Below, piece after piece: positions 4,920 to 55,695 of a DNA stretch of 64,000 bases. A program made the translations under genes and the position numbers. Source of the DNA: Antedon bifida (Eukaryota; Echinodermata; Crinoidea; Comatulida; Antedonidae). Under the pieces are notes generated by a model that saw only the letters and a program-made list of their open reading frames with translations, did not search any database and was not told where the DNA came from. The stretch spans positions 26,927,001 through 26,991,000 of the forward strand of contig OY727099.1 of assembly GCA_963402885.1 (NCBI GenBank), written 5' to 3'. Every line of letters starts with the position of its first letter. The stretch's first letter is position 1.

Positions 4920-5430
4920 CATTATTAATAAATATATATTTTGACTCTGTTTCTTCCATACTCTGCTACAGCTACACTCTTTGGTATTTTAGATATTATG
5001 TTGATCACTATAGGTGTAGTTTGTGTCTACTTGATACCAGTATGTTCTCATCACAATCTATGGCTATATTCTGAGGGTAACGTACATAACCATCTATTGC
5101 ACCATGCTCTATGAGAATTCTCATAAATGTACCATTTGGATCAAACAGTTGTATTCTGTTATTCAAATGATCTACAACAATCAGGTTCCGTTCCTTTGTG
5201 AGAGCAACGTCACTTGGTAACCTCATTTGACCCTCTTCGCTACCCTCTTCACCAATTTCACCAAGAAAGTCACCATTATCAACATTAAATTTAAGTACAC
5301 AGTGAGATTCTCTGTCGGCCACATACATGGTTTTAGTTTCCTTATTTACTGTCAAGCCTCCGGGATGTTTTATTATGAAATTTATCGTCACAGGAACAGT
5401 TTTGTTTAATAAATTATATTTCAAAATTGT
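4920..5430 (-). pseudogene. NHL-repeat gene fragment, unit 2
   Basis: Minus-strand sequence matches the NHL end of the gene at 9051-10617 (PGGLTVNKETKTMYVADRES is near-identical). It has an internal deletion of about 60 bp near 5008 and further deletions above 5374. No filamin domain, coiled coil or start is present. It is the unit-2 equivalent of the unit-3 gene and is dead. The reading frame at 5008-5424 (138 codons) is a remnant. Confidence 0.8.
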
Positions 5431-5819
5431 AATTTTATAAATTCACAAATTATGTTTTATAATCTTCAAGTAATGCACAGTTGATTCCCAGGCTTTCAAT
5501 ATTTCCTTTTACTTATTTTGATCTCATATTATCTTTCGTTTTTTATTTTGTTGAATGTGGAAAAAAATGAATAACAAATATGCTTGTTTACATTTCAGTA
5601 ACTTTTATTACTTTATACTTTATACTACTGTATATTAATACACATCTTTTTCATGTCTAAGAAATGTTGCTTATTTTTAAGTATTAACAAATTTAAGTAA
5701 ATCGCTAATTATCCAACAACCACACAGGTTTGTTAGGTCACAAGTGTAAAAGTGCTATTGAGTGTACATATAGAAATTGTTTGTATTTCTGGTAGTATGA
5801 CAAATTGAAAATGTGCTAA

Positions 5820-8207: not shown

Positions 8208-8331
8208 CTGTAAAAAATAAAGCAATTATAAGCCTCAATCTGTAAATAATCTGAATTATTATAACCTATCTAAGATTACAGTTAACAGATAAATTAGATT
8301 AATATAAACACAAAACATCAGTAATACTTAC
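8208..8331 (-). other. 5'UTR intron of the TRIM-NHL gene
   Basis: On the minus strand the donor GTAAGTATTAC is at 8331 and the acceptor TTTTTTACAG is at 8208, directly before the ATG. The same donor and acceptor are conserved in the unit-1 pseudogene (about 4380 and 4256), which supports the reading. The upstream untranslated exon lies above 8332; its start is not clear. Confidence 0.55.
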
Positions 8332-9050
8332 GATGATAAAATATGTTACAGAAACGTTATACGAAAGTGACAAAAGCAGTAAATACTCAGAGTGTAGTAA
8401 GACGTTAAATTTAGGGTTGGGCACAGAAAACCAGAAAGTGATGTCATATTCTAAAAATAGTTTGTTGGAATTTCCAAAATATTCAGTATCTGCTGATTGG
8501 CTAATGCAAAGATAATGATGTTGGGGAAGGTTTGCTTATTTGTGTGACCTTTGGTTACTATGACCCCATGAAATAATTTTAATAATAAATAATATGATAT
8601 ACTGTATTATATATTATAAATGAATAACTTTTCAATACAAAATTAAATTTAAAGCAGCTTTCTTTACTTACATTTATTGTTCCAGTTGACAACAGTGTCA
8701 AATATACCATAAAAAGAAAGGACGTTAAGCGATTATTTGCAGTCTAAAGTCTACTGATACACATTGTTGCCTTGTATTAAGCTGATTGGTCAGGTCAATG
8801 GGTGTGGGTGAAACCATTATCAAATAGGTGATACCAAAATGTATCCAAGCTTACAGTATGTTTTGAACAACAAATCATTAAACTTATTACATCACATGAC
8901 ATATTTTTCATTCACAAACTTAAAAAGTTGGGGTTAGGGTTCAAATATATAGCAGTAGTGTTTTTTTTTTTAAATAAATATAAAAGTTACAATATAAACC
9001 AAATTCTGATTAATGAGCATATATTAATTGTTACCCAGTTGTATACATTA

Positions 9051-10617
9051 TTAATAACTATATATTTTTACTCTGTTACTTCCATACTCTGCCACAGCTA
9101 CTCTCTTTGGTATTTTAGATATTATGTTGATCCCTAAAGGAAAACGTAACCCATCATTATTTATTTGTTTTATAAAAACACCATTGTTATCAAATTGCTG
9201 TAGTTTGTGTCTACTTGATACCAGTATGTTCTCATCACAATCTATGGCTATATTCTGAGGGTAACGTACACAACCATCTATTGCACCATTCTCTACAAGA
9301 ATTCTCATAAATTTACCATTTGGATCAAACAGTTGTATTCTGTTATTTAAATGATCTACAACAATCAGGTTCCGTTCCTTTGTGAGAGCAACATCACTTG
9401 GTAACCTCATTTGACCCTCTTCGTTACCCTCTTCACCAATTTCACCAAGAAAGTCACCATTATCAACATTAAACTTAAGTACACAGTGAGATTCTCTGTC
9501 GGCCACATACATGGTTTTAGTTTCCTTATTCACTGTCAAGCCTCCGGGATGTTTTATTTTATCTCGACCAAATGTACGAATTTTTTTAAAGTTATCGTCA
9601 CAAAGGACAACAGTTTTATTTAATAAATCACTATATATTATATTGCCATCATCCATTTGGTGCATATATGCAATCTTTGCATCATCTGCTACCTCTAGTC
9701 TTCCTATAAATGAATATGATTGGTTGAATTTTAGTAACTCTTTACTACAATTGGACACTATAATATACCCGTTTTTATCTAAAACTATATCTCCTACTTT
9801 TCCATCTTTATATATTTTAAGATCTTCTATGCCATCAATTGTATGCACATGTCCATATTCTTCCACTTTGATATCCACTGGTGATCCTTTAATGTGTGCA
9901 GATTCAGCAGTGATTATCATCTTCCATTCACCTTCCTTAGGGCATCTTCCTGTTATTCTATACTCTCTGAACCCAGGTTTCACTTCAGTGGCCGATTCCT
10001 CGCCTGATTCATTAATTAAAGTTACAAATAGTTGATGTTTCTCACTTCCAACTAAAATTGATTCAACTTTCACTTCAAATGGTTGTCCCTTTGTGACTGT
10101 AATAGATTTGTATTCTTTAGCAACCTCGTACACACATTCAGCATTTGAGATGATACCAATTCCTTCTAAATTTATTATCCGATCTAAGTTTTTAGATGGA
10201 ATGAAACTTGGTGTAATTCTCCTGTGTAATGCTTCATAAAAGTTTGGTTCCAAAACTTCATCTTTTACAGCATTTATATTTGCCTCATGTGATATAAGTG
10301 TTTCTTCTGGTGTGTTCAACGATTCATTTAATGTTATCAGATTTGAATTAATGTGTTTAATTACATCATCAATGTTTTTTTTATTTTCGTTGTAAATCTC
10401 TTCAATGTCCGTCATCATTGCGCTGCTTTTTTCCCGAATCTTTTTAATAATGTTTTTTTCTTGTAACTCAATCGTTGTTCTGCATAACTGTACTTGAGAT
10501 TCAAAGTCTGATCTTTCTTTAGTGACTGTATCAAGTGATTCTTTTAGTATGCCTCTAATTTCCTCCGCTACATGTTTTTATGATAACTTTTGTTTCATCA
10601 ATCCTCGAATCAGACAT
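9051..10617 (-). pseudogene. RING-less TRIM-NHL paralog, probably frameshifted near its start
   Basis: A long frame (9051-10418, 455 codons) encodes the end of a coiled coil, a filamin-type domain (ESAHIKGSPVDIKVE) and NHL repeats up to a stop after KIYSY. Upstream the coiled coil continues in frame (KERSDFESQVQLCRTTIELQ) to about 10573. An ATG directly after a CATTTTTCAG acceptor lies at 10617 but in another frame, separated at an AAAAA run; one base would separate the two frames. No RING or B-box is present: the ATG leads straight into the coiled coil. Either it is a recent pseudogene, or a shortened protein starts at the internal Met at 10418. A RING-less, propeller-only paralog could act as a competitor of the ligase form, but that is speculation. 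Confidence 0.65.
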
Positions 10618-21641: not shown

Positions 21642-24600
21642 TTAAACCATTGTATAAAATACATGAGACATAAGTAAATCTACCATTTCATTAACACATT
21701 CTGTTGGCATGTGTACGTCATTCGCGGATGGATATGACAATGCCAAATCCCATACGTCAATGAAATGCACAGGTACATCCGCATAAAGTTCTCTGATAAT
21801 TCTATTCATATCCCAGAATACCCAGTGATTGCTCTGCACTCTGGTTTGAAATATTTTATGATCACGTGGGTGTGAGCTTCTAATAGCAACTTTGACGTCA
21901 CTACACCGATTCATAAGTCGAACGATTGCTTCCTTTATGTAGAACATATGATCGCGGTACGTTGGTTCTGTCCAGGCGCCATAATGGGCCCAGTGTCCTA
22001 ATATTATGAGGTATTTACAATTGGAATGGCCAGGTAATCCATCTATCAATTCTGGCTCAAATTGTTCCATCACGTGTTTGATTGGGACCCGTTTACCGAG
22101 CGAGACTGGCAAACGATTATAGTGAAACTGAATAACAAAGTTGCTATATATTTGTTGAAAGTGCATCCGGCTAATATCGCCTAAGTTCCTGCGTCCCAGT
22201 CGGTTGTTCAGTGAAACGTACCATTGTTTAACCGTGGAATCTCCAATAATGTGTACTTCATGACCAGTGAGAGCAGCGTTTATATCAGATGTAGACCACG
22301 TTTTAGTTTTACATTCCAATGACTTCCACTTCCCGTATTCCCAATACCCGTTAGAAGATAGTTGAGGTCTAAAACCAATCCTGCATGGTGTTCTTGGTAA
22401 CGGTGTGGTCCTCTCATTTGGTATGGATTTCTGAACGTTTAAGTTTATTGAAAGAGGCACCCTTTCGTTGTAGAATGGGCTAAAGGAAAAAAACAAAACA
22501 ATTATTATGATTTATAAAACGTGCGAAGATGTTATGACACTACAATAATCATATTCAATGTTTCTTTTTTTAATGGGAAAGTTCGACTGGAAATGTTTAA
22601 CCTATAACAGTCGTTCTACAAACAACTCTATACCAAATATTAACACCTTAATTAGGAAACCAAGATCAATATAAACTTTTTCATGTGCTGAACATCGGTC
22701 ATCGTTACTATGCTAGATGCCGCTCAACCAGGTTTGTATTGTTTATGCAAATTAACTCATTTGCATATACCGCAGTTTTAACGCAGTTGGTTTTCCGCGT
22801 TAGTTCAGCAGTCAGGATACAGGCCGAGATTTGTGTACCAGTTTATCACGGGTTTTTATTTATTTACTTCGATTACTCAAGATTTATATTGCCTTACTTG
22901 TGGATTATATTTGTTACCGGTACATTTCCTTTGAAAGTATACTGAAATGGAACACATATTTCATACTGGATGGAGGTATGTTTTGCTATCTATTTTTAAC
23001 ACGATTCTCCTGTAGATTATCAGTATTGTTGTATGGCACGATTGACCATAAGTTGTATTACATTGTAGGTCAATTATAGGCTTAGGATTTTGTTAAATAG
23101 TTCAGTTTCGACAAATGACAGAAGTCCTATGAATTTAGACCTATATATTGACATAAGTGTAACTATAAGTCTGGTTCCCACTAAACGCAACGCAAGCGAT
23201 TTGATTATGAATTATCCAAACGTTTCGCTTACGTCCTTGCGTTGTCGTAGTGGGAACGAAGCTTAGACTACCTTTTAAAGTACTCGGTAAAATTGAACTT
23301 GTTAAGAAGACGATCCACAGGTTTGCTAATAGCATTTGTATTTTCATCCGATTCGATACTTTTAAGTTCATCACATCTGTGACGTAATGGTTGATCACAG
23401 ACAAAAACCGTGTCACCCATTCCTTTAGGTCCTCTTCCATACTCGCATTTTGACTCGAATAATCTCCCTCTTTTCACTCGACACTCTTGTTTTTCAATCT
23501 CCTTGTCATCTGTTTTATAGATTCCCCACCATAAAAAGGTATACTCATCCGGCCTGTATACTTGCCGTATCCAATCTAACGCTTCTGCCGTGTACACAAG
23601 CGTAAGATCCATTACCATGTCTCCAACAGATCCGATATAAAACCGTATTAAATAGGATCCGTTTTTCAAATCTGTTACACGACCAGAAGTGCTGTAAAGA
23701 TGTTGTCGGTCATGTAAAGTTGCAAACCAAAATTCACCGCCAACATTTCTTGATTTGTTTTGTCTATCAAAGGTTGTTACAAGAAAATCTACATAGTTCC
23801 CAGTTACTATTTGATCTTGTCCTGTTATAAGTTGCACACGTGTGTGTTTTGCACTTGTCAACGTGTTTCTATCTAAACTCGTAAAGTCTGTACTTGATTT
23901 TGAATTTAGAATTCTAACGTCGGTAGAGTTGATGACTTTCCTTAATTGTTCATGATAGGCAAGCCAGTTAAATTGCGTTGTATTGTTGTCTTCGTCTGTG
24001 TCATTATACACAAGCTTTCCAACAATCAGAAAAACCTAAAAATAAAAATGTTCAAATTTGACAAATTTGACATAACTAGAAAACAAAAAAATAAAAGAGC
24101 CTCATTTTGATTAATTTCATTTTTATTATTTTATTTTCAAGTGACAGAGATGAAAATCTCCACTAAAAACTAGACATGAAACTCGTCACTTTGACGAGTT
24201 AGTTATCCGCACCACGACAAACGCCACGTGCACGTCATACGTTGGAATATTGCACACAGATAAAGATTATGGCATTATGACAAGAACTGAAGAATATGAC
24301 ATGCTGTTAGTGCTGAATTTTGTGTCATATAGTATATACATGCAAACAGTATAAGCTGTATACATATTACATACAGTGTAGAATAGGTGAAATTACGGGA
24401 CCCGCCATTTATTCCAATTTTTAACATGGCGACGGTATCAAAATGAAACACTTAGATAGCAATTTCAGAAGGAAATTATCTCAGGAACAACATATTAACG
24501 TGTAGAAGAAATTTGAATACGTAAAATATAGATGCGCACCCTTTTAAATGTGATGAACTATTACGCAAAATATGAAAATACGACTTTTTTTATTCAACTG

Positions 24601-38116: not shown

Positions 38117-40080
38117 TTAAAGATTTCCTGCAACCCTTGCATTGTTATGGTTTGCTACTTCCAGTAATACTTCAAGAAGTATTCCATCCACTGTCGGGAT
38201 TTGGTCTTCCAAGTCACTTGCTATGGCTCTGATCTCGTTTGCAGCTTTATCTGGAGAACCACTTTGAATCTCTTTGAAGCGGTTATAAATTGTAGCCCCA
38301 TCAGCAACCAAGTTAAGTACGCCCAGTAAAGCTTCTTTTCGATCATTGTTTGCTAGAGTTAAACATAATTTTTAAATTTTAAATATATCCATAGGCCTAT
38401 TTGAAACAACGAAGACGATAATACAAATGAGTTTATTTAATTGCTAAATAGACAATGCAGGTATTACCTCCATGAACAGATCGTGACTTAACTCATAATC
38501 AAACATTTTGTGATACATGCATCATGTAAAACACGTGTGATACTGTTTTACAGAATTTGCCTTCCTTGTTTTTTGTGTTCGACCAAATAAGTGAATGATT
38601 GAATGAATTCATGTATGAAAAGTACAAGGATTAGATAGAAGTTTGTTTTATTACTAAATTAAAGACTTTGTGTCTTGGCTTTTGTGTCTTGGCTTTTGTC
38701 TTTATCCGTATGCCTACATTTCAGATATATCTTTTGTGAGGTATTCAATATTTGTGTACCAGTGAGGGGAGCTAACATGTACTTACTTTTGCTCAGATAC
38801 TTATCAGTAAACCCGCCTACAAAGACCAATGATTTTACTATTTCTTTCACTGTGGAAAATTAAAATAACATATTATTTACCGCGGTGTTTGGGTTACGTT
38901 ACTAAACGCTTCAATGTATTACTTCCTTTAAATTGCAACTTCCTCTTTAGTGTTTATCCGGTACCAAAGGTTAAAACAGAAGTGGTAGCCCAAAAAATGA
39001 ATTTGTTTTATGCTTTGTTTATCAAATTACCTTTAGTGTTATCCTCGAACGCCGCTACATTCTGTCTTGTCATAAAAATATTCCCAATGTCTGGTAATAA
39101 AAAAAAAACAAAATCAAAATATTTAGTAAATTTGAAGACCATCCAAAATTCGTATTTAGTTAAAATTCTGCCCTCGTCACAAAAATATTGATAACTTCAA
39201 ACGATTGATAAAAACGCCACTTTTTTCCTCTCACCCAATCGTTCCTAAATCAAATGGAACTTCGTATTAATAGTTACCTAAGAATACTTGTGTGTGGTCA
39301 CCATGGGTTTCAAATCGTAAGATAGCTCTATCAAAGGAGGTAGACAAAGATATGAATCTCTCCAAACTTCTTCGGTATCTCTCCTTCAGATTACCAAGTC
39401 TGTGAAACGTTTGGTCATCTTCCATCACCCCAATCGCCTCTTGTGATCCCCTGCTTGAATTAAGATCAGCCCATGCGTCAGCAAAAACATCTGTAAGTTT
39501 TTCAGTAGCTCGCATTGCACCTCGAATGTAAGAACCGTCAACTGGTAGTTTGTAACCATAAAAGGTGCTCAACAAACACGCACAATCCACAACAAATGCC
39601 AAACAGTTTACAGTGACTTTGGCAATGTCGCTTTTGTGTCGTGACCTGTTTATTTCGTCTGCAATGTGTCGAAGACGTTGGACAAGTTCTGCTCTTCCTT
39701 GCGCCCATTGGTGTAAGTCGGTCTCTAACGCAAGTCTATCCTCTTTTAGTTGGTGCTCTGCCTTCTCAATTCGTCTTTGTTGAATCTTATACCAGATGAA
39801 ACCAATCAACGCTAAAACTGCAGGAAATCTGAAATGTATGTAATAAAATTAGTGGATACCTTTTGTTAGCTGCAGCTTTTCGTACGCGCGATAACTTTTA
39901 AACTGTTAGACATAGCAATATGTCAATAAAAAATACTTACGCCCAAGAAGGGGCATTCGTAACATAAATCATATGGGTTATAACAAATAATCCATAAACG
40001 CAACCGCCAATTTTATATCTCATGTTAATTTCCAGATGACGTTGTCGTTCACCAAATTCTTCTTCACGGTTTCGATCCAT
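38117..40080 (-). CDS. ApoL-like membrane protein, paralog A
   Basis: Five exons on the minus strand: 40080-39941, 39828-39278, 39090-39031, 38849-38787, 38352-38117. Splice sites and phases agree and give 349 aa. Residues 24-41 and 47-59 are hydrophobic and would form a hairpin in the membrane. There follows a charged, likely coiled-coil stretch (66-97), a helix LRHIADEINRSRHKSDIAKV (98-117) running into a hydrophobic helix, and a C-terminal segment with GSPDKAANEIRAIASDLE. The two last stretches resemble the apolipoprotein L pattern (LADKV-K-H-x-TIAxV and GAK-x-x-AEELKKVAQELEEKL). I take this as a divergent ApoL-family protein, perhaps acting in intracellular membranes; function unknown. 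It shares exon plan and intron phases with C. Confidence 0.75.
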
Positions 40081-40261
40081 TACTTGGTCACTTTTCCTGT
40101 AATTGTATATATTCTTCGTTAGGCTACTACTATTTTCAGAAGTTGAATTTTATTTCGAAGTTATAGCTTATTCGCCGTAGATCTATAGCGTTTAAGCAAG
40201 TTATTGTTACCATTTTTTTTAATCAATAAATGTATTATCAAGGCGACCATGGTGAATCCTG

Positions 40262-40748
40262 GACTAAAAAATACAGACGATTTTCGTGCTACGGAAGCTC
40301 TTGCAGAGAGAACAGTCGTGACCAACCGAGCGTAAAAAACAAAAATAACATAGCGTTTTCAGGGGATTTTAGGACACCATGTAACATGTTCTTAAAAGAT
40401 TGGCCTACATAACTGTATGATTAACCACTTAAAATCCTTCGAAAAAACACCACATTGTTATAAGCATATGCGGAAAGAAATGGTGGTGACAAACGCCTAC
40501 ACTGTGGTGTTTTTTTTCGATGGAATTTAAGTGGTGAAAACATTTTTTATAATTTTTTCAATCATACAGTTATTTAGTCCAATATTTTAAAAATATTTTA
40601 CAGTAATTTTTTTCTCACGATTTTTTAATTGGTGTCCTGAAATCCAATGAAAACGCTATGTTATTTTTTTTTTTACGCTCGGCTGGTCATGACTGTTGTC
40701 ATCTCTGCAAGATGGCTTCCGTAGCACAGAAATCGTCTATTTTTGGGC
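40262..40748. mobile_element. Foldback (long inverted repeat) element
   Basis: The arm at about 40262-40480 (CAGACGATTTTCGTGCTACG, CCGAGCGTAAAAAACAAA, TTTAAGTGGT-type words in reverse order) is repeated inverted at about 40490-40748 (GCTTCCGTAGCACAGAAATC, TTTTTTACGCTCGGCTGG). The centre is short. It would fold into one large hairpin. No coding capacity. Confidence 0.75.
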
Positions 40749-40819
40749 CTTTTTTGTATGGATTGTCACACCATAATATGTGCATAACATAATAGTGTAT
40801 TAATTATTATTATTATTTA

Positions 40820-41110
40820 GTAAGTAATAGTTCGATTCAAAACTGTGACTATAATATCTAAAATCTGCCGATGATGGCGCAATGGAAATTCCAAAAGTAT
40901 AAAAATAACCGTTCAAATAGGTTTGTACGCAAAATGGCCGTAATTTAATGAATATTTTTTTAGAAAAGTTGTTAAAGACTGTTCCTATAATTGAATTTGA
41001 ATACTAAAGATGGTAATTTATAATAGAGATATTGTTACTTCACACAAACCCCGGGCCCACCGGGTCGATCCTGGCATGAAAACATTGATTGGGGTGGCTA
41101 TTAGTAGGCC
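40820..41110 (+). repeat. Dispersed repeat, partner of 42395-42660
   Basis: AAAACTGTGACTATAATATC, GATGGCGCAATGG, AATATTTTTTTAGA and CCCCGGGCCCACCG occur in the same order here and at 42395-42660. Copies are diverged, with short indels. 41081-41200 and 42700-42760 also share ACCATAATATACACCTAATA words. No gene. Confidence 0.7.
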
Positions 41111-42987
41111 CCTAATATATAAGCTTAGTCACCATAATATACACCTAATATGCCTAATAAACTAGGCATATAATAAGGCTATCTAGGTTTGTTCAAAATT
41201 GTGCTGGTATTGAGAAACAAAATGATTAAACTTACCTGGCCTAGGTCTAAACCTTGTATTTGGTCTTGTTTTATGGGTGTGACTATAAAATCTAAATTGA
41301 AAATGTTTCTAAAAATATCGCAATGAAAATTCCAAGAGAGTGTATTATTACTATACTTCCGACATTAAAAAAAAAGTGTCTTAGGCGCACTACATCTTTG
41401 TGTATGAGTTTGTTGTAATATTTATGTCAGCCTCTCACAGCTGAGATCCGAAGTTCAATTCCTGCTGTCGACGCGATATGTTTATCTTTTTTTTAAAATT
41501 AAATTTTTTAAATGATATTTTATTATAATTTTCAAAAATATATTTTGCTTATGTCGTGAATACTTGACTCTTAACCTTATGGTCAAGTTCTTCAAGGTTC
41601 TCATCGAAACTGCGACATGTAAATAATGAAATATAGACAAATGTTCGTTTTTGTGGATTGTGACCTTGACCTTTGACACTTCCCCTTTAAAACTGAACTA
41701 CCCATATATTATAATGTATCATAAAATAATTAAAAGATATATTTTTTGATCTTTGTTTTTGTGCTAATTGATATAAATCCTTTATATTATATAGAAATTC
41801 TCGTAATATTAATAAGATTTTCCCTCGAATATATCTTTTTTTTTGGTGTTATGCATCTTGTTTAAATATTGCTGAGGATTGTTCTTTAAATTATTGTCAG
41901 CGTAGTCAGAGTTTGTCAATATTCGGATAAAGTGTGGTCTGTAGGCGGTAGCCCTAAATATTAAGAAATACTATTTTGTGGGATTTGACCTTTGACCTTT
42001 GACCTTACAGTGAGTTTGGTCCTATTGATATTATGAGTTAGTACGCTTACACCCAATCTCTGGTTTTGCGTCCTACCACCATATCAGTATCGTAATATTA
42101 AGTATATTATATGGCTATAGTGCAATAATAAAAGAAATGAGAAAGAAAGAATTAAAGTATTGCTCTTTTTTTTGTCGCACATAATGATGCAATTTATTAC
42201 TCATATTTAAACCAAACAAAAATATTTCCAAGACAATCCTAAACCACATCGATTTGTAGAATTAGCTCATATAGGAAAATAAACTGAATATGTGATAATA
42301 AATAGGTTTTAGAATTAGTTCAGATTTCATTTCGTTCTCTCAATTTGGTTTTAAATACAATTTTTTTTAAACAAAAGCTTATTTAATAGTTAAATTCAAA
42401 ACTGTGACTATAATATCTAAAATCTAATTGCCGATGGCGCAATGGTAATTGTAAAAGTATAAAAATAACAAAAAGGTTTGTCGGCACACTGGTTACAGCT
42501 TTACAATGGGCGTAATAATGAATATTTTTTTAGACAATTTGTTAATCACTGTTCCTTTAATTGAATTTGAATACTAGAGCTGGGAATTTATAGTAGATAT
42601 ATTTACTTCACACACACCCCGGGCCCACCGAATATACGGTCGACACTGGCCTGAAAAACATTGATTGGGCTATTTGTATACGGCCTTTGTATATCCTTAG
42701 TCACCATAATATACACCTAATATTGTATGCCTAATATATTTAGGCCTATAGGCTATTTAAAGCTAACTATTTTTACATTGGTATCAAAATTTACACTTCC
42801 ATCACCTTGATAGCAACAGTCAGTCAATATTGGTAGCGTATTAATACATAAAATGAGTTATATGTACTCCGTTGAAAGCCAAACTCTATTCTTTAAAATG
42901 TACAATTTTTACTACGACTATACAAGACTAACTTGAAAATAATTGTAATACTCCATGTCTATTTGCAAATTCCTCTTTTGAATATTT
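41111..42987. other. Gene-free stretch between ApoL-like A and the nested transposon
   Basis: AT-rich, no exon recognised. 41375-41480 has a weak tRNA-like head (GAAGTTCAATTCC as B-box). 41985-42005 contains a short GACCTTT tandem. 42395-42660 is the partner of the repeat at 40820. Confidence 0.45.
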
Positions 42988-43667
42988 ATTAGTCGCGTGA
43001 AAGCGACTCTATAGTTCACTATGTCGGTCGGTTGGTCTGTCTGTCTGTCTGTCGGTCTGTCTGTCGGTCCGGTATCACTATGCGTTTTATCGCTTTCTAA
43101 CCTTATCTTGATATCAGTTTAATCTAGCTAAGTCAATTTTTCACAGAATATTCCTTATGGCCAGGAATCGATGTGGTTATGTTTTCACGGTGCGCATTAA
43201 AAAATTACGCGGTCTACGCACGATTTAACGAAATCACGTTTGTAATCATATCTTCACAATCATGAATCACAATTAAATAAAATTTGGTACTCATAAATTT
43301 CAGGGCATAAATCATCATATGGCAATACAATTACGTGCGTAGCGCATGTAACGCATGCGTACGCGCGCTTAAAATTTTCAAAATTTATTTTCGATGAAAT
43401 AAGAGTACGTTTCAGGCAATTTTAAGCGTTTACAAAATTGCCATGAGTGCGCAGATTTTTGCGCGCGCACTGCGCGTTAAATGTTATTGCGCACTCTTTT
43501 TGCCCGATTTCTGTTTTCTTGACTTACTTTTCAACTCGAAATTACGTTATACGAGCACGTCAAAAGTGACAGGCTACGCACGTGTAAATTAAAAAAATAT
43601 AAATGTTTTTAAACATTTCAACATTTTTAAACATGTTCAGTAATTTCGGTCAGTATAGTTTACTATG

Positions 43668-45269
43668 GGCCTGTTTCTGCTGCATAAAAATAACCGGTTA
43701 AAATCGGTGTGAATAAATTAAAATCGGTGTGAATAAATTAACTCCATTTTCTTGCCAGCAGAAACAGGACACATTTTTGGTAACCGGTTAAAAGGCAGCG
43801 CAAAATAACCGGTTAAAAACACCAATTTAAATCGGTGTTAGAACGCCGTTTAACCGGTTATCGCTGAGCAATTCTTAGCTGCAACACGAAATAACGGTTA
43901 TTTGATTGACAGTTGTGACCCCGGGTCAGATACCGTCTCGTACCATGTGTGTTTTCCTCGTGGTTTTGACAGTCGAACGAAGAAGTGAACATGTATGTGG
44001 TTGAATGAAATCACAAGATATGTTATTCAGTTGTGGGGGGAAGAGAAAGTACGGTGAAGGATGGCAGGCAATAGAAAAGATTCACAGATATATAAGAACA
44101 TTTTTGCGAAAGTAAAAGAGGAATTCGGGGTGGAGTTCCGGACTACCCAAGCTAAACAATTTGAAGCGTTAATACACGCTCGCGAAGGATATGGTCCTAT
44201 AAATACCAAAACGGAAACAAAAGGGACTCAGAATGTTGCAAATACCTACCAAACGAGAATAGATAATGGTTAATTAATTATGAAAACCCAAATTTTATAG
44301 CAAAAATCGTCCGAATTTATGTTAAAAAACGATGAATTTAGCAACAAAAACTGAAACCAAACGAGCGTATTTATGGCACGCCCCTAGTGCCTTTAACAGG
44401 AGAACAATGAACAATCTTATTTTGATCGTTTTACATCATCATTTTTTATAAAAACATCACATCGACCGAAAACAAAGGTTATCAGAGCCTTTGTTAATAT
44501 ATTAAATATGATTTTATTAAGCATAGAAATGTGCTATTATTTATGTTAGTATATAAATATACGAAATAATGTTCAACACTCATTATTCTATTAAAGGCAC
44601 TATATGCGTGCGATATTCTATGACTTGGATACTCTCGTTTGATTTAAGTTTTTGCGGCTAAACTCATCGTTTTTAACATAAATTCGGACGATTTTTGCTA
44701 TAAAAGTTGGGTTTTCATAATTAATTAACAATTATATACTCTCGTTTGGTAGGTATTGCAACATTCTGAGTCTCGTTTTTGTTTCCGTTTGGTGTTTAGT
44801 AGGACCGCGCTCGCGAAAGACAACTGTCGTTCACGTGGGAAGGGCCGTATGACAATCGCCTTTTTGAGGAATTAGGCTAGATAATAATTATCCTAGGCGA
44901 TCGGGCGCTGCACGACCCTCCCCATGTTTATTGAAGGCGGCATGAGAATTAATTTTATTAGTGATGGTAAGTAGGCTTTACAAAAAACAAAACTTCTAGA
45001 CCTGGAGACAACATTTTATTATGTTGAGATGTTCGGCGATATCACACACGTGCGTACTGACGTCGATGTAAACAAACAGCCAACTTACTACTTCCGTCTG
45101 AGTGTATTGCATTTTGGGTAATGATGACGTTTTGCTCGACGACCACCCATAGATTTAACCGGTTATTTCGGAGCACAAATTGAGCAGAAACGCGGTCTTG
45201 TTATTGTTATCTATTTTTAATCTATTTTAAAATAACCGGTTAAATTGCGTTATGCAGCAGAAACAGACC
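43668..45269. mobile_element. DNA transposon with GGYCTGTTTCTGC termini and internal inverted repeat
   Basis: Ends GGCCTGTTTCTGCTGCATAA and (reverse) GGTCTGTTTCTGCTGCATAA; both are followed inward by TAACCGGTTA. Flanking CTATG at 43663-43667 and 45270-45274 is a 5-bp target duplication. The flanks joined together recreate the intact sequence seen at 43012-43030. A second inverted pair lies inside (about 44180-44375 and 44625-44822; shared AAAATCGTCCGAATTTATG). One short frame remains (see 44061). A TAT/GGG reading with a 3-bp duplication is also possible, which would suit PIF/Harbinger. Confidence 0.75.
44061..44273 (+). CDS. Short Myb/SANT-like frame inside the transposon
   Basis: 70 codons: after MAGNRKDSQ it reads IYKNIFAKVKEEFGVEF with a following TTQ and K/R. 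This resembles helices 2-3 of the Myb/SANT-like domains carried by Harbinger and other elements. The first helix with its tryptophan is absent, and the end runs into the internal inverted repeat. It may be a remnant of the element's DNA-binding protein, or chance. Confidence 0.3.
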   Translation: MAGNRKDSQIYKNIFAKVKEEFGVEFRTTQAKQFEALIHAREGYGPINTKTETKGTQNVANTYQTRIDNG

Positions 45270-45299
45270 CTATGTCGGTCGGTCTGTCTGTCGGTCTGT

Positions 45300-47598
45300 C
45301 TGTCGGTCCGGTATCACTATGCATTGTAGCACGCGACTTAATGGCTGTTGGCCTTGTTTTTTTCTCTCTTTTACAACTCTTACATTTTTACGATTTGCAA
45401 CATCCAATAATATTTCAAAAAGTATTTCGTCCACTGTTGGGATTTGCCCTTCCAATTTACTTGCTATTTTGTTTATCTTGTCGGCAGCCTTCTTCAGAGA
45501 ACCATTTTGAATTGCTTTGAAGAGTTCATGAATTGGTGTCGTATCTTTACCAAACATCTCTAGTACATTCAGCAAAACTTCCTTTCAATCACGAACAGAA
45601 TAAAACAATAATAATCACTTTTTCATAAGTACGTTTTTTTTAAATCAATTTTTATCGTCATTTTATTGCCATCGACATATTTTAACTAATTGTATTTTTA
45701 AAAATGTATATGAATGTAAATGTGGTTTCTTTTTAACATCAAAATAATCTTAGCCTATGTATATACTGTTTAAAAGAGATGTATTTTTTTTAGCAATATA
45801 CCTTATAAATAAGAGAAATATATAAATGTGCATATATATATAATATTATATTTATAACTGTCAGAGAACTATAATAAAAGTGGGACGAACCCACACAAGA
45901 CAAAAAAAAAACATCTCTAGTACATTCAGCAAAACTTCCTTTCAATCTTTGAAAGAATTTGAATAATTGAACATAAATTTCGTATCAATATGCAACAAGC
46001 TGGCTGAGGTTTTCTACATAAATATTCTGTCCCGAGATATTACTGTAAATTGTAATAATAACAGCCATGATGGTTTGTCTGTGGCAAAATTGTTTCTGTT
46101 TGTCAAAATTAATTCTGAGTGTAATTTCGGTAATTAGTTGATTAACGTTGTACTGTACGTATTAATTGGGATAACTTTCATGTTAACATTTTTCTTCAAT
46201 TATAATAATATTACAAAAAATACTGTACATTGTATTGTATTATCTTATGTAAATTTTGAATTTTAGAGTGATTAATTACCTGTATTCTTACGGCCATTGA
46301 ATACACTTATTTTCTGTCTCACCATAAAGATAGTCCTAATCTCTTTGAAAAAAATAAACATATAAATTAACAAATATAATCTCTAACTTTTTAACAAAGA
46401 ATTAAACAAAACACGTTTCATTCGTCCAAGACGACAACATTATGAGATCGGTCAGATTTAAGGGGTAAATTTAGAAAGCATGCTGTTTACGTTTATAGCC
46501 AGAAATATTCATAATAAAGAGTGATTATAGTTGGACGTAATACGATATTTGGTGGATTGTACCTATAGGTATACAAAATTAACTAAAAATCGTCATAGGT
46601 GCCGACGGCAACTGTTGCTTACACAAGCAGCACTGCACAGAGGTCCGACAAATACTTTTACATCAAGATGTAACCAATTATTAGAAATGTACTTTTTTAG
46701 CATCTGAATAATATCTCATCAAATATCATAAATCTCTGTGTAAATATAAGGATGAAATATACTTATACCCAAGATAACCTGTGTATCGTTGCCATTAGTT
46801 TCAAACCGCAAGATCACTTCATCAAGCATGCTGGATAAAGCTATGTAATTTTCTAAACTACGTCGGTATTTCGCCTTCTGTTTTCCAAATAGGTTAAATA
46901 TATTCTCAAGCTCCATGGGCCTAAACGCATTTTTAGATTCCCCTGTTAAATTAGTTAGGGTCGAGTAAACAACACGATCAGCAATTTTGTCACATCCATG
47001 CAGTACACCTCGAATGAATGATCAATTAGAAGTTTGTAGCCATAAAAATAAATCAACGTACATGCACAATCACCAACAAACGATAAACAGGCCACAGCTT
47101 TTTTCCCAAACTCACTTTTCAGTGTTATTCGGTTTAGTTCAACATTAAATTGTTTAAGACGCACGGAAATCGCCTCTCTTCCCTTTTTCGTCAATTTAGT
47201 TAACTCTTTCTCCAACACAAGTCTATCCTTTCCAATTGATGCTTTGCTTTTTTCAATCGATATTGCTGAACAATGACACACATCGACACACATACTACCG
47301 ACATACATACTGAAAACAAACTGGAAAATATTAATATAATTAGTGAACTTAGTGAATATCCAAACAAAAAAGATTTTTTTATAGAGACCTGCATGATGTT
47401 GGCCGACTCAGTAGTTCGTGATTTTATAACAAATGAGAAATAAATAACTTCTTTTACTTACGCCCAAGTAGTGAAAGTGAGCATAATATAATATGCATTG
47501 ACTACAACAAATACGTAAATGCAGCAGGCTATTTCATTTTTTATTTTCATTTTGCCTTGGCGTTCATCGTCACGTCTATCTTCACGGTTATCAGCCAT
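45300..47598 (-). pseudogene. ApoL-like paralog B, broken
   Basis: Recognisable exons: 47598-47462 (MADNREDRRDDERQGK and a hydrophobic helix), 47320-46769 (core), about 46340-46280 (IRTIFMVRQ) and about 45590-45300 (C-terminal GQIPTVDEIL segment). The core exon is split over frames in two places, the last exon has a stop at its start, exon 4 is not found, and the C-terminus runs into transposon sequence at 45300. A short duplicate of the last exon's start lies at 45912-45950. The exon plan is the same as in A and C, so it was once a functional gene. Confidence 0.75.
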
Positions 47599-49347
47599 GT
47601 TACTGTCCACTTTTATAGAAATATTAATCCTACGGAATTGTGAGATAAATATTATTTGGTTTACAAGACAACGACTAATAATGATGGCAATACCAGCTCT
47701 GGTTTACTTTGTCTTTTAATTGAAAGTTTTTGTAGTGAACGCTGACAAAGAATTTTTAAATAGGCTACTGACCGAAAAAAATCAGAGCGTAGTATATGTC
47801 TCTATTAACATTAACAATTATATTGCGATCGTTATTTATTCGTGCTTAGCACATTTGCTGTGCACTTTTCTCTCGCATTTGTGATACTCTATTGAAGACA
47901 ACGAAATGCAACAACGGTAGCTGAGTTTAGTTTAAAGAAGTCTAGTAGCCTATTAAAACATGCTACAAATACGAATTATTAACTTACCTATCTACGTTGG
48001 ATCTATTGCGCTTATTGAGCATCGATGGGAGTGACGATCTTATAAGTGATGTGTTTTTGTAATGACAAGATGAAAATTCCAAGAATATGGCCTAAAAAGT
48101 AGGCTAGTACACAATGACAATATTTTCAAAATAAATACAGATAAAAGGGTTGGACTGTTATGCAGCAGATAATGCGATCAAAGTGTGAGGAGTGTAATTG
48201 AATAGACAAGTTTAAAATTTCAGTATTAGTAAACTTCTGTATTGTTCTTCATATACATGCACATTAGAGAGTACTAATAATAATATTAATAATAATATTT
48301 ATTTATTTCCATACAATTTAAAAACAAAATATACAGAGTATTTATGACAACAACTATAGATTACGTATGCAAATAAGTATAGGCCTAGTTAGACACATTT
48401 ACGTAATAAATGAGATGGTGGGAAATGAGATGGTGGGAAAGAAGGGACGTTGCAGGCCACGCATGATAAAAGAACTTCAATATATACTTAAAGTTGTATT
48501 CAATCTTTTATCATGGCGGTAAATTAGGCATAAAATAGAAAAAATTAAGGAATAAGCAGAATATGGTTTGACAATTAAATCTAATAATATTTATAATATA
48601 TTACCTAATAATAATTACAAATCTAATAACTTCACAGGAGAAACAATTTACTTTTACTTATGGTATTCTTTAAATTAAATTTATATTTTTCTTTAAAATT
48701 AATTATAAAGTACAGCAGTACTGCCGATGGACTTCTTTCCGGTAAGTCAGGTCCTTTATTTGATATTCCTCTTTGTCATAGGGCCTATACATTTTGATTT
48801 TTTGTTTGAATATAAATACATTATGTCTGTTACTCGTATCATGTGTGCAATGTTTAGAGATGTTGTGCTTAAAAAGGGAAATTAAAATTGGATGGCAATT
48901 TATTTTATGAAAACTGAAGTACATTGTTTATATTATAAATCATAGTAAGAGAACTTGTTTTTACAAAGATGGGTAAAGATGGATGATAGGCTTTTATATG
49001 GAGAGCAATATATGTTAGAATAAAATTACAAAAGATGGACACAAACTAGAAAAAGACAAATTATTTGCTGAAATGGAAATTTTTCTACTAGGCAAATACA
49101 AATGGTATTTCATATAGTGCGTTGTGGTGAATTTATTGTCTTACTATTATTACCGGCAATAAAACTATACATTAGGCCTATATTGATACGTGGTGATATT
49201 GAACAAATCGCAATTCATTATTTGTCACTATACTTTAAATTGTACAATTTGAATTGTATTTATATTAGACCAAATTGATAAAAAAAAAATACACTTTTGG
49301 TATACCCTGTTACATTACTGTGTTGAAATAAAATTTTTTCTTACAAA
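47599..49347. other. Spacer between ApoL-like B and C
   Basis: No host exon seen. 48270-48950 may be the decayed end of a LINE: an (AATAAT)n start, TTTATTTATTTCCATACAAT, and a minus-strand frame (48703-48924) with LFKHNISKHCTHDTSNRH. Support is weak. Confidence 0.35.
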
Positions 49348-51341
49348 TTAAAGATTCCCTACAACTCTTACATCATTACAGTTTGCTACTTCTAATAATA
49401 CTTCAAGAAGTATGCCATCCACTGTTGGAATTTGTTCTTCGAGGTCATTTGCGATGGCTCTGATCGTATCTGCAGCTTGATCGGAAGAACCTTTTTTAAT
49501 TTCTTTGAAGAGGTTACAAATTGATGTCCCATCATCAGCAAACAAGTTGAGTACGTTCATTAAAACGTCTTTTCGATCATTATTTGCTGGTGATAAAAAC
49601 ATAATTTTGTGTAGGCCTACTAAAACTTAAGACATGGTGGTGTCAACACTGATGATCCTTTATCCTAGGCCTACCAATGTTTTGTTCTTTGGCCTTTAAT
49701 CAAATCAATTTTGAACCGTTAGTGATATTGTTGCGTTGAACATCAAATGTTGATGTTACACCAGACAGAGGCAAATTTAGGAATAAATGTTGGTGTCTTG
49801 ATAATAGTTTTTCAGAACGAACATTTTAGGCTACTCACCTTTATTCAAAAACTGACCAGTCAATCCTCCGACAACAATCACAGATTTTACTATTTCTTTA
49901 ACTGTAGAAGTTAGAAATTAAAAGAATCAATTAACTTTTTGATAAAATAGCATTGAATTGTTCAATTACATTTTTAATTGAACATATTTTGGTGCCTCGG
50001 TGGTCAACATTCCTGGAAATATTACGATGAAATGGGTGTGTTGAAACTTATTGTAGTTTGTTTTGGTTTATTCTCATGGTATAACATTTTAAATCGTGTA
50101 TAGTGATTATTACCTCTATCATTCTTGCCGCCATTGAATACACTTATGCTGTGGTTTGTAAAAATATTCCTAATCTCTTAAATGAGAAAAAAGTTACGTT
50201 ACTTTTATTATTTTAATCTCAGCAGTGGAACAGTGCTATTTATTTGCTATTAAATCCATGAATTAAAATGATAGCAATCCTCAATGGGAAATGGGTCGCT
50301 AATGTAAAAGTATATATAACACTGTTCATTTGAGTAATTAGGGCGTACTTAAAAATACTAAAATGCTGAAAATAAACTCGGGTCTAGCAAAAGCATCTGA
50401 ATGACTTTCAAATGTCCCATCCCAAATCCCGGAAATTAAAAAAAAAATGTTCTTTTCCCTCTCTTCATCATAATCGTTGTGTTGGAATAGAATTTGATTT
50501 TAGCCTATTTTGTTATCTGTATGTGTTTATTATTAAAGCCGAATCGAATAACTATTTGAAAAAAAGAATAGGCACCTAAAAGCACTTGTGTTTGGTTGCC
50601 ATTGATTTTGAACCGCAAGATCGGTCTATAAAAGGGCATGTTGGTTAATGCTATGTATTCCTCTAAACTACGTCGATATCTCATCTTCAGATTACCAAAT
50701 CTTTTAAAGGTCTGCTCAATCTCTTTAGACGCCTTTTTTGACCCCCTACTTGAAGTAAAATTAGCAAGTGCATCAGCAACACGATTAGTGAAGGTTTCAG
50801 CAGCATGCAGTGCACCTCGAATATAAGAAGCGTCAATTGGAAGTTTGTAACCATAAAAATTGATCAAATAACATGCACAATCTCCAACAAACGATAAACA
50901 GGCTACAGCGGTTTTGGCAATCTTGCTTCTCTGTCTTGATCGGTTTATTTCATCTGCGATGTGCCTAAGACGTTCAACAAGACTGGTTCTTCCTTTTTCC
51001 GCCCATTGATTTAACTCCGTTTCTAACGCAAGTCTGTCCTCTGTTAGTTTATGCTTTGCCTTTTTAATTCTATTTTGTTGACGCAAATACCAAATGCAAA
51101 CAATCAACAGAAATACTAATAGCAATCTGAAAATATACCAGAGTCAACTCATAATTATAATTACATTTTAAATGTAATATTTTGACATTTGTTAGATAAT
51201 AAAATGAAATTATATTTACTTCGAAACAGAGACGTTCATCGAATAACCCGCAAGACATACTCCATAAAAGAAAATTTGCTTCAAATCCAATTTCCAATTG
51301 ACTTGGCGACCGGTGAATTCTTCTTCACGGTTATCATCCAT
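49348..51341 (-). CDS. ApoL-like membrane protein, paralog C
   Basis: Five exons: 51341-51220, 51126-50576, 50176-50114, 49901-49839, 49586-49348. Total 1038 bp, 345 aa, all junctions GT-AG in the same phases as A; the 551-bp core exon has exactly A's length. Parts: acidic N-terminus (MDDNREEEF), membrane hairpin (IFFYGVCLAGY and LLLVFLLIVCIWY), coiled coil, core helix LRHIADEINRSRQRSKIAKT followed by VACLSFVGDCACYLINFYG, then VKEIVKSVIVVGGLTGQFL and the C-terminal GSSDQAADTIRAIANDLEEQ. The last is close to the LPDE-type end of apolipoprotein L (SAEELKKVAQELEEKL). It is the most similar to A, most likely a duplicate. Function unknown. Confidence 0.78.
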
Positions 51342-53544
51342 GTTTATTAATACTCAGGCATACGACCAATGATGACGCTGTAGCCATGAAAAATCATCAA
51401 ATCAATACAAAATTTATATTAGACAATAAAATTACATTCATAATTTAATAACGTGAATTACTTTTTTAATATTTATTTCGTATTTACATAGACCACACTA
51501 CACTTTTTGTCACATCCTTTTTCAAAGGCGAATCGTCTCTAAATAAATACTAGGCCTATTCTATTTATTTAAGTATGCCTATTAACTGAGTATTGATTTT
51601 ATCAGCGCGCTGCACACCAAAAAATAGTAATCGCTTATAAAAACAATTAGGGCCTAACTTTTCTGTGTTCGTTATCGTTAAAAATGAAGTAGGCCTATGT
51701 CCATCTTTTTACATATTAAAATTGGTTTAAATAATAAGCCTATAGCAATTCTTTTATATTCGACATCTCATTCTCAAACCATTTTTGTTGTATAAAAGAA
51801 AAACCCATAACTTACTTTATTGTATGCCCTTGTATCATAACAGTTTGAATACAAACAGTATCCTTAAATAAACTTTTTAGTTGCAATAAAGCCTATATAA
51901 CTGCTAATCGACAAATAAATCAGAGCCTACCGTATAAGAGATAGTTAACACTGTTTGTGAATGTAATGACGTATATGATGAAGACGGGAAAATCACACAT
52001 TTATTTGGTATATACCATAGGAACTTCAACATCATGAGAACAAACCATCTGCTGATGATCGATCTCTGACATTACAGGAGGCGTTAAACTTCATCCTATT
52101 AAATATGGTATCACTGCGCATTATCAATAGGCAAAAAGGCTTATTATATTGATAATCCAACAGATTCTCGGTACTGTATCTAGATTTTTGTAATTGGCCT
52201 CCAATTTGGTATTAATTCTCTTTTTCCGTTTTTGAATAATAACTTTTCTATCCCCTTCTTTTTACTTCCTGTTCACCAAGATAAATAAAACAGATAAGAA
52301 TTTTATTTTTCCATTTTGCATGGTTACTCTACTTTTAATAAATTACGCCCTCAGTTGGCGAAATATGTCGCATGTTGCGTTGCATATAAAATAATAATTA
52401 CGTTTTTTAATAATTTATTTTATATATAATATCAACATTGGCAATATCAATAAAATATGTTATTAAATTTAAACTCCTTTAAACACTTTATAAATACCCA
52501 AATATGTATATTAACAATCCATAAGATGTGCACCATGTCCAAATCAGTCCATACGCCCTCTGTTTTCTTATATAGAGCTACTTTATCTTGGGTGGAGGCA
52601 GGGAGTGCACATAATGCGAACGCATCCCCGACATCCTTAAATGTATTATTTTAGAATATATTAGTATATACAGTTAGTACAAATCATCAATATTGTTTTT
52701 AAAAATGTTTAATATTAAGTCAAAGCCTAAACAATTAACAAAGGTTCTTTAGATATTGTTAAAACGGTACATGATGCTTATGCGTTATAAAAACGGAAAA
52801 CTAGTCGGAACTGTGCTGAATATTTGCTTAATTGACCATGTCAGTCGATCAGATGCTTTTTTGGACATTTTGTAGTTTTAATAAAGTTAATAGGCCTAAC
52901 TTCCATTAAAAAAAAATGATGAAAAAAATGTTTTCACTTATAAAATGACAAAATAAATGTTTTAATTCAACCAAAAACCCGAGCCAATTTAACTATTTTT
53001 TGTTTAATTCACATTTTTTTCAAGTAAATATTTTTTTTTCAATCCAATTTTTTGTCAAAGTGAAGAACTATTATGTGGCATTAAAATGGCATATTCAACC
53101 CAATTTTTTTTAGGATTATTTTGTCCGGGGGACAATACATCTTTAAGCTGCAATTTCCAAGCATTTAGTTACGGGGATAGGGTGGTGAGTATTCTTAAAT
53201 CCACATCCCTACAGCAAATATTTTTACGATTATTATTTCATATTTATAGTTATATCAAACATTAACACAAATTTAAAGAAAGAAAAGAAAACTTTAACCA
53301 AACAATTACAAATGTTATAACCCTAATTAATTTTAAGCGTACCTTCGAATAATTTACATTTTTTTTTCTTTTTTCTGAAACTTAGGCCGTATTCTCTTAA
53401 AAGAAAATCCTTTACCATAGCTGTAATTATAACTTATGCCGGTGAATCAGTTCTATTTTGAAGTTTCTACAAAAGACTGAGATCATTTTGACCCACGATA
53501 TATACAATTTGAGTTTAAGTTTAATGCAAAATTACTTGTATAGA
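51342..53544. other. Gene-free spacer between ApoL-like C and D
   Basis: AT-rich. No exon, tRNA-like head or clear repeat seen beyond scattered AGGCCTA words and homopolymer runs near 52910-53110. The promoter of C should lie just above 51341; no core element stands out. Confidence 0.45.
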
Positions 53545-55695
53545 TTAGCCCACAACTTCACGTGATACTTGTGTAAGTATGTCATCCACTGTAGGAATTT
53601 GTCTTTCAATTCTTTTTGCTATGACTCTTAGCTTTCTTTCAGCTTCATCCAGAGAATCACTTTCTTTTAGAGGATCATCAGCATTTATGATACCAGTAAC
53701 CATGCTAATTATCTTCTTCTTCTTCATATTTGGAGCCAACTTCATATGTGAAGACTCTGCTCCTCCAACTCTGTTTTGCTAGCTCTACTGTATTTGGTTG
53801 TGTATTATTATTCTATTTATAGTTATTCTTTTACAGAGAATTTCTATTTAGTTATTCTTTTCTATTTAGTTATTCTTTTACAGAGACAAACTGACTCCCT
53901 TATTTATTCATAATTATTATTATTATTATAATTATTATCATTATTATAATTATGTTTAGTAAAACTTCTTTGCGATCTTTGGCTCCTAGTCGACAACAAG
54001 AAACAATTTTAGATTAATGTTTTAAAGTTAGCTCATAATCGCATAAATGTTTTCGCCCTGTGGTAATTAACGTTTTCTCCGACCTCTTAGATAAGAGCTT
54101 AAAGCACACACGTGTCCAGGATAAATGAGAAGTTATAACTACACAATTTGAAATTTGTTTTCCTCGCAGTTTTTTACCAACACTATTAGGCATATATTGT
54201 GATGTTTAAATCACAATAAACTTGATTCTTTATTGATGATTGTTTTATATAGTGGTGACATATCTGGTAATTCAACAATGATGTTAATGATTCATTACAA
54301 TATTATTTGAAATAACCATATTCCCAACAAAAGTAAAGTAAGCTAATAGTTGATATAGCGTCTTTATATAACTGTTTGTGAATACATTTCACGACAATTC
54401 GATTGCTAAAAGTCGTTCTAAGCAAATAAAAATTCGTCAAATGTTGGGAAAATAAAATATTGTCCCCCTCCCCTTTTAATCCAATTTCACGACAATTCGA
54501 TTGCTAAAAGTCGTTCTAAGCAAAAAAAATTTGTCAAATGTCGGGAAAATAAAATATTGTCCCCCTCCCCTTTTAATCCAATTTTCAAACAATTAAATAG
54601 ACCTAAACATAGACGCATTCTGTCCACTGGTCAATGATATGTATTTATCAAAACTACATTGGTATTTCTTCATAAGATTATTAAGGTCACGATAAAAGAT
54701 CTGTGTCTCTTTCGTCGCCATATTCGCCTCCTGTATCCCACTTCTTAATTTCGAATCAGCCATATTAGCAGCAAGATCACAAGTAAGGGTTGCAACAACT
54801 TGCAGTGCCTCCAGAATTTTAGGAATAATTGGAGGTTCGACATTAAACATTTTCTTTAAAAAGCTTGAACACCCTCCAGAAAAATTTAATCCTTTTTTAA
54901 AAATCCAGTATTTATATTGTGATTTAGCTATTTCATCTGCAATGCGTTTAAATTCTTTTGTACTTTCCCACCATTGAATTCACTTTCTCTTGAAAGCGAG
55001 TCTGTCCTCCTCCTGTTTACGATCAGCTAACAGGATTCTTATTTTCTTTTCTTTTTCTTCTAACTCTTTGTTTTTTGCTTTAAGTTCCGCTTCTTTAGGC
55101 GTGGCTTCGTCTTCTTTAAGCTTGGCTTCTTTTTTGAGTTTGTCTTCTTTAAGCTTGGCTTCTTTTTTGAGTTAGTCTTCTTTAAACTTGGCTTCTTTTT
55201 TGAGTTTGTCTTCTTTAAACTTGGCTTCAAGTTTAGAATACCAGTGCATTAGACCGATTGAACCAATTAACACATATATGAATGGATACAACCTGACAAT
55301 GTAACATTAAGATAATTATTGTAAGCCTACTTCTGAGTAATCCATTATACTGATTTTGAAACTATACGTTTTCCACCTAACTTGAAATTAAGGTCTACTT
55401 CTAAGGCCAAATTTTACAGTGCTCGTTATTATTGAAATTGAAACGTCAGCCGATGCGTTCAAACGCGGATGACAAATGTACAGACTGTACCATTGCCAAG
55501 TCACGAAACAATGTTTATTATCATTATTGTCAACAAAATTTATACTCACACAGAATCAGGAGCATTTATCGAGTACAGCAGATTGGTTGTTGCACACAAT
55601 CCATAAATACAAACCCAAAATGTTCCCGAAGTGTTTACATCGTCTTCACTGTCACTTCCTTTTTTACAGTTTGCATCCATATTAGCTCCTGACAT
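53545..55695 (-). pseudogene. ApoL-like paralog D, divergent and broken
   Basis: Exon 1 (55695-55550) has an acidic start and a hydrophobic helix. Exon 2 (55292-54603) has a second hydrophobic helix, then three to four 11-residue repeats of the type KFKEDKLKKEA, then EFKRIADEIAKSQYKYW. Exon 5 pieces at 53985-53955 (KDRKEVLLN) and 53745-53545 (ending IERQIPTVDDIL) are interrupted by an ATT microsatellite. The core exon contains two in-frame stops (in the repeat near 55172 and near 54978). Exons 3 and 4 are not recognised. It is the most divergent family member, with an expanded K/E-rich repeat that may have arisen by slippage. A shorter product cannot be excluded. Confidence 0.65.
54386..54581. 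repeat. 98-bp direct tandem duplication
   Basis: Two almost identical units starting ATTTCACGACAATTCGATTG and ending in the CCCCCTCCCCTTTTAATCC run. It is in an intron of the D pseudogene. Confidence 0.9.

What the first reader, a model, noticed from the sequence alone, without database searches (positions are those of the whole stretch)
38117..55695. Four-gene tandem family of apolipoprotein L-like membrane proteins
Seen: A (349 aa) and C (345 aa) share five exons, the same intron phases and an identical 551-bp core exon; B and D keep the same plan. Known: ApoL proteins have a LADKV-x-x-x-H-x-x-x-TIAxV helix before a hydrophobic hairpin and a C-terminal AEELKKVAQELEEKL. Inference: the pattern IADEINRSR-x-x-SDIAKV and GSSDQAADTIRAIANDLEEQ is a divergent ApoL relative outside vertebrates. 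If true, it extends a family best known from vertebrates to a tandemly expanding invertebrate clan.
Basis: partly seen in the sequence, partly recalled or inferred. Interest (0 to 1): 0.8.

Follow-up and report, generated by a model that had tools for sequence, protein, structure and literature searches.

The report
Divergent invertebrate ApoL genes, half-hairpin lost
Two intact genes and two broken copies in an echinoderm-like genome are distant members of the apolipoprotein L family that keep the gene plan of their relatives but appear to have lost half of the membrane-inserting hairpin typical of that family.

Summary
The tandem family is real: A (349 aa) and C (345 aa) are intact five-exon genes, phases 2-1-1-1, each with a 551-bp core exon. 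B and D are broken: B has two frame changes in the core exon and no exon 4 found; D has two in-frame stops and no exon 3 or 4 found. The ApoL reading holds by descent, not by direct match: PF05461 gives A 14.9 bits (cut-off 25.9) and C nothing. But A's core finds paralogues on C8 (E 7e-12, 4e-10, 1e-5) at places that pass that cut-off, and paralogues share the five exons and phases. Their profile scores A 85.0 and C 62.6 bits; the best of 2,000 shuffles scores 4.7. A and C keep the first arm of the ApoL hairpin but not the second (hydropathy 0.04, 0.34, against 1.09-1.90 in 10 of 10 paralogues). They are unlikely to insert like canonical ApoLs; my best guess is a membrane-tethered, non-pore partner of them. 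ApoL in invertebrates is not new.

The parts
39941..40080 (-). Gene A exon 1 (140 nt, ends phase 2)
   Evidence: ATG, GT donor, spliced frame open
39278..39828 (-). Gene A core exon 2 (551 nt): ApoL-like helical core; first hairpin arm kept, second lost
39031..39090 (-). Gene A exon 3 (60 nt, phase 1-1)
38787..38849 (-). Gene A exon 4 (63 nt, phase 1-1)
38117..38352 (-). Gene A exon 5 with stop; C-terminal D-x-AAxEIxxIAxxLE segment, in a stretch matched to PF05461 positions 240-293 at 14.9 bits (below cut-off)
45270..47598 (-). Remnant B: exon 1 (47598-47462), core exon about 47320-46769 with two frame changes, exon 3 (46342-46280), exon 5-like piece (about 45590-45372); exon 4 not found
51220..51341 (-). 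Gene C exon 1 (122 nt, donor GTAAAT, ends phase 2)
50576..51126 (-). Gene C core exon 2 (551 nt)
50114..50176 (-). Gene C exon 3 (63 nt)
49839..49901 (-). Gene C exon 4 (63 nt)
49348..49586 (-). Gene C exon 5 with stop (239 nt)
53545..55695 (-). Remnant D: exon 1-like piece (from 55695), core region about 55300-54593 with two in-frame stops, exon 5-like piece (53697-53554); exons 3 and 4 not found

Best explanation
A and C are two intact, long-diverged members of the apolipoprotein L gene family in an echinoderm-like animal, from the same five-exon ancestor as the C8 and C12 ApoL paralogues (group II); B and D are broken copies. SHOWN: homology, shared intron plan, constraint on A and C (dN/dS 0.43), loss of hydrophobicity in the second hairpin arm. 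INFERRED: the protein sits on a membrane by its N-terminal hydrophobic segment and the one remaining arm, cannot make the canonical two-arm insertion, and keeps the helices before the hairpin (DRLALE..W..R..L...L..IADEI) and the C-terminal helix; it most likely acts as a tethered, non-pore partner or modulator of the other ApoLs, in innate defence or cell-death control. Split: family membership about 0.93; loss of canonical hairpin insertion about 0.75; partner or modulator role about 0.35.
For: A core against its own genome: C8:17882110 E 7.3e-12, C8:4643599 4.3e-10, C8:4657468 1.4e-5, the same places as PF05461 matches of 40.3, 39.1 and 27.2 bits, over the cut-off. Spliced paralogue models pass PF05461 in 3 of 5 scanned (GII_1 42.4, GII_2 50.4, GII_4 50.1). 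Group II profile: A 85.0 bits, C 62.6, best of 2,000 shuffles 4.7; reverse search finds 6 of 6 group II at E 3e-11 to 5e-20; hhalign 99% over 307 columns. Exon start phases 0,2,1,1,1 in A, C (C's first donor moved by 3 nt) and in 4 of 5 spliced paralogues, the fifth unresolved at exon 4. Tree: A and C join 5 of the 7 group II cores at 99/99, and 94/99 without hairpin columns. Hairpin: arm 1 A 1.94, C 1.52; arm 2 A 0.04, C 0.34, against 1.33-1.86 in 7 of 7 group II and 1.09-1.90 in 3 of 3 C9 ApoLs; charged residues 10 and 8 against 1-2 in 7 group II. A versus C dN 0.267, dS 0.615.
Against: A and C themselves fail PF05461. They do not match the single-exon C9 ApoLs: A 5.6 bits, below two shuffles (7.1, 6.1), C not listed; hhalign 1.3%. 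2 of 5 group II models scanned also fail the cut-off (16.1 bits and no match). Nesting inside group II is not settled (AU p 0.25). C9 hairpins are less extreme than group II's (3-6 charged residues, 28-32% Gly+Ala), so charge and composition alone separate A and C (8-10; 19-25%) less sharply than hydropathy does. Loss of the arm rests on hydropathy, not on a structure or an assay. The partner role has no direct evidence. The segment before the C-terminal helix (0.97, 1.21) overlaps two C9 ApoLs (1.15), so loss of the pore-lining segment is not shown.
Confidence: 0.6

Rival explanations
1. A and C are still membrane-inserting ApoL effectors that use the remaining hairpin arm plus the N-terminal hydrophobic segment as a new two-helix insertion unit.
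For: Arm 1 stays hydrophobic (1.94, 1.52), and C's N-terminal segment is stronger than those of the group II models that show one (2.43 against 1.45-1.75).
Against: The two segments are about 50-55 residues apart, with a charged helix between them; A's N-terminal segment is modest (1.49).
Confidence: 0.25
2. Decaying genes: B and D are dead and A and C are on the way, so the lost arm is erosion, not a new function.
For: Two of four copies broken; long branch of the pair (1.85 changes per column).
Against: A and C are open over five exons with GT-AG introns, and dN/dS is 0.43 at dS 0.6; both share the altered stretch (FYGYKLP[IV]D.SYIRGA), so it was kept since their split.
Confidence: 0.12
3. 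Not ApoL: an unrelated helical family whose likeness is coiled-coil chance.
For: Direct PF05461 scores are below cut-off or absent; no match to the C9 ApoLs.
Against: Same five exons and phases, long profile match, shuffles and 1,042 window ORFs as controls.
Confidence: 0.03

Closest known systems
Group II ApoL genes of the same genome (C8:4.64-4.66 Mb, C8:17.88 Mb, C12:1.67-1.68 Mb; L020, L021, L022, L026)
   Same: Five coding exons with phases 2-1-1-1 in the four fully spliced models, collinear core and C-terminal helix, 23-29% identity to A over the core
   Different: A 64-69 aa N-terminal exon in five models, a Gly/Ala-rich two-arm hairpin, and a more hydrophobic segment before the C-terminal helix
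Pfam PF05461 apolipoprotein L; human APOL1-6 (PMC8358165, passages seen)
   Same: C-terminal stretch of A aligned to profile positions 240-293, below cut-off; membership through group II
   Different: By hydropathy A and C lack the second of the two transmembrane segments described as the membrane-insertion domain; human sequences were not compared here
Apolipoprotein L named in Mytilus galloprovincialis haemocytes (PMC4581086) and Crassostrea gigas (PMC3595286), passages seen
   Same: Invertebrate ApoL, so ApoL outside vertebrates is not new
   Different: Sequences not compared here

Membership tests
Apolipoprotein L (PF05461) | Direct match above the curated cut-off (25.9 bits) | tested here: not met
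   A 14.9 bits; C none at E 0.1
Apolipoprotein L (PF05461) | Significant homology to proteins that do pass the cut-off | tested here: met
Apolipoprotein L (PF05461) | Shared exon plan with PF05461-positive genes of the genome | tested here: met
   A and C share phases 2-1-1-1 with GII_2 and GII_4 (over cut-off) and with GII_3 and GII_5 (under it). The C9 ApoLs are each open in one frame of 331-380 aa and do not share the plan
Apolipoprotein L (PF05461) | Two-arm membrane-insertion hairpin (MID) | tested here: not met
   Arm 1 kept, arm 2 lost by hydropathy; 10 of 10 paralogues measured keep both
Apolipoprotein L (PF05461) | Hydrophobic pore-lining segment before the C-terminal helix | tested here: inconclusive
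   A 0.97, C 1.21; six group II models 1.58-2.05; three C9 ApoLs 1.15-1.68
Apolipoprotein L (PF05461) | ApoL fold | not testable with these tools
   Structure prediction switched off
Apolipoprotein L (PF05461) | Cation conductance or lytic activity | not testable with these tools
   Needs an experiment
Bacterial tripartite alpha pore-forming toxins (AhlB, SmhB) | Significant sequence match | tested here: not met
   Profile A2, best E 0.016, hairpin stretch only

The most novel reading that the evidence does not exclude
A subfamily of ApoL that gave up half of its membrane-insertion hairpin and became a membrane-tethered inhibitor or assembly partner of the animal's other ApoLs: a built-in brake for ApoL.
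Probability: 0.25. Interest if true: 0.65.

Novelty: new variant of a known kind. Interest (0 to 1): 0.4.

Why it matters
Human APOL1 kills some trypanosomatids and is tied to kidney disease (PMC8358165, passages); how animals restrain such proteins is, to my knowledge, open. A natural family member that keeps the body but not the full hairpin would separate membrane insertion from partner binding and give a test protein for it. It also shows that a profile cut-off can miss true ApoL descendants that gene structure reveals.

Tried and rejected
Direct Pfam as the sole test: below cut-off, so intermediates were used. C9 single-exon ApoLs as bridge: no match. Weak Pfam matches to other families for A, C or their exons (YscO-like, DUF6377 and others): each below its cut-off, rejected. 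PDB: the profile of cores listed 24 sequences at E up to 10, best two molecules SmhB and AhlB (E 0.016-0.03), none named as ApoL; a C9 ApoL listed 3, none ApoL. Literature: ten searches; one search was too loose to be of use, and one search listed 20 of 1,344. 'A new N-terminal anchor' was dropped: four group II models have a hydrophobic segment at the same place.

Full report
Setting. The window lies at C12:26927001-26991000 of a 315.6-Mb genome of 27 contigs. Its 15.8-kb contig C27 holds COX1. Read with code 9, AAA gives N at INMR, NNMSFW and DRNVNTTFF, where N is expected (recalled). Code 9 is used by echinoderms and flatworms (recalled), and the COX1 looks echinoderm-like to me; I take the animal as an echinoderm or near relative. 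This is inference from one gene.

Observation. A and C were modelled exon by exon. A: 140, 551, 60, 63, 236 nt; C: 122, 551, 63, 63, 239 nt; phases 2,1,1,1; 349 and 345 aa. C's first donor was placed 3 nt off and corrected. B shows two changes of frame within the core exon, no exon 4 found, and an exon 5 piece without AG at the homologous acceptor and behind an in-frame TGA; D shows two in-frame stops, no exon 3 or 4 found, and a partial exon 5. Whether assembly errors explain any of this cannot be told here. Over 338 codons A and C have dN 0.267, dS 0.615, ratio 0.43 (NG86; YN00 0.45), and 0.35-0.45 in the four segments tested: two constrained genes, not a fresh duplication.

Is it ApoL? Directly, no: PF05461 gives A 14.9 bits (E 0.018) over the C-terminus and nothing for C. 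Indirectly, yes. A's core finds 12 places in the genome: five in this cluster, five on C8 and two at C12:1.67 Mb. Three of the C8 places are among the six reported over the PF05461 cut-off (one of the other three, on C9, only with its neighbours in the frame). I modelled these group II genes: GII_2 to GII_5 have five coding exons with phases 2,1,1,1; GII_6 is unresolved at exon 4; GII_1 has no exon 1 in my model and GII_7 only its core. Of five full models scanned, three pass PF05461 (42.4, 50.4, 50.1 bits), one scores 16.1 and one has no match; of the other two, scanned as cores, GII_6 scores 25.2, just under the cut-off, and GII_7 none. The group II profile, built from six models, scores A 85.0 and C 62.6 bits, best shuffle of 2,000 at 4.7; the A+C profile finds 6 of 6 group II and 0 of 3 C9 ApoLs at the inclusion threshold; hhalign gives 99% to group II and 1.3% to C9. 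Of 1,042 window ORFs the 7 at E < 0.01 are exons of A-D.

Placement. With all columns A+C fall with five of seven group II cores (99/99; 12 rows). Without hairpin columns (10 rows, two C9 rows left out) the fork is 94/99, and a tree with group II held together is not rejected (AU p 0.25). So derived from, or sister to, group II.

What changed. Group II hairpins (seven) are 54-58 aa, 36-45% Gly+Ala, with 1-2 charged residues. C9 hairpins are 53 aa, 28-32% Gly+Ala, with 3-6 charged residues. In A and C the stretch is 52 aa, 19 and 25% Gly+Ala, with 10 and 8 charged residues. Best 19-residue hydropathy: arm 1 A 1.94, C 1.52 (group II 1.90-2.40, C9 1.84-2.17); arm 2 A 0.04, C 0.34 (group II 1.33-1.86, C9 1.09-1.90). 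The segment before the C-terminal helix is weaker too (0.97, 1.21 against 1.58-2.05 in six group II), but two C9 ApoLs score 1.15, so this is inconclusive. An N-terminal hydrophobic segment around the start of the core exon is kept (A 1.49, C 2.43; four of six group II models peak at 1.45-1.75, GII_6 shows none over 1.4, the GII_1 model lacks that part). In human APOL1 the first two transmembrane segments are described as the membrane-insertion domain and the fourth as pore-lining (PMC8358165, passages). By that yardstick A and C lack half of the insertion domain.

Mechanism. Shown: descent, gene plan, constraint, loss of hydrophobicity in arm 2. Inferred: membrane tether through the N-terminal segment and arm 1; no canonical insertion; retained helices free to bind paralogues. 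A modulating partner of ApoLs is my first choice at about 0.35; rivals are a rearranged insertion unit and decay.

Novelty. ApoL in invertebrates is already reported: it is first in the list of haemocyte non-shared transcripts of Mytilus galloprovincialis (PMC4581086, passage) and is named in Crassostrea gigas (PMC3595286, passages). A PF05461 gene is also listed for the algal virus TsV-N1 (PMC4517135, passage). Searches pairing apolipoprotein L with sea urchin, sea cucumber and echinoderm listed 2, 2 and 6 papers, none of which by title is about an echinoderm ApoL; apart from PMC3595286 these were seen in the listing only. I ran no search for a half-hairpin ApoL as such, so I cannot say that none is in print; I know of none.

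Verdict. A true, divergent ApoL pair plus two remnants: new variant of a known kind, moderate interest.

Noticed in passing
window 1889-10577, minus strand: Cluster of TRIM-like genes: the 5820-8225 frame has RING, B-box and NHL matches over cut-off and a filamin-like match below it; the 1889-3622 and 9051-10577 frames have NHL.
   Followed up: partly
window 21642-24035, minus strand: NXPE-like gene: the 21642-22511 frame matches NXPE4_C at 145.2 bits; the 23268-24035 frame has no Pfam match at E 0.01.
   Followed up: partly
window 1270-1860, minus strand: Weak GIY-YIG match, 17.0 bits, below the 22.6 cut-off; a Penelope-like retroelement piece by recall.
   Followed up: no
window 45552-45601 and 45909-45958: 50-nt duplicate (90% identical) of the start of B's exon 5 piece, 357 bp away.
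   Followed up: no
window 43035-43089 and 45274-45328; L026 785-1261: A repeat (GTCTGTCGGTCCGGTATCACTATGC core) that runs into the 3' end of B's last open frame; its translation (THSDTGPTDRPTD) recurs in an ORF near the C12:1.67 Mb paralogues, so it is probably dispersed.
   Followed up: no
L020, L021, L026 (group II paralogues): A conserved 64-69 aa N-terminal exon ending in W[RK] at phase 2 in five models; the one scanned alone had no Pfam match at E 0.01.
   Followed up: partly
L001, L004, L006 (C9:31.79-31.80 Mb): A second ApoL type in the same genome: three neighbouring single open frames of 331-380 aa with PF05461 matches of 46.3, 35.5 and 25.5 bits (the last over cut-off only with its neighbours in the frame).
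   Followed up: partly
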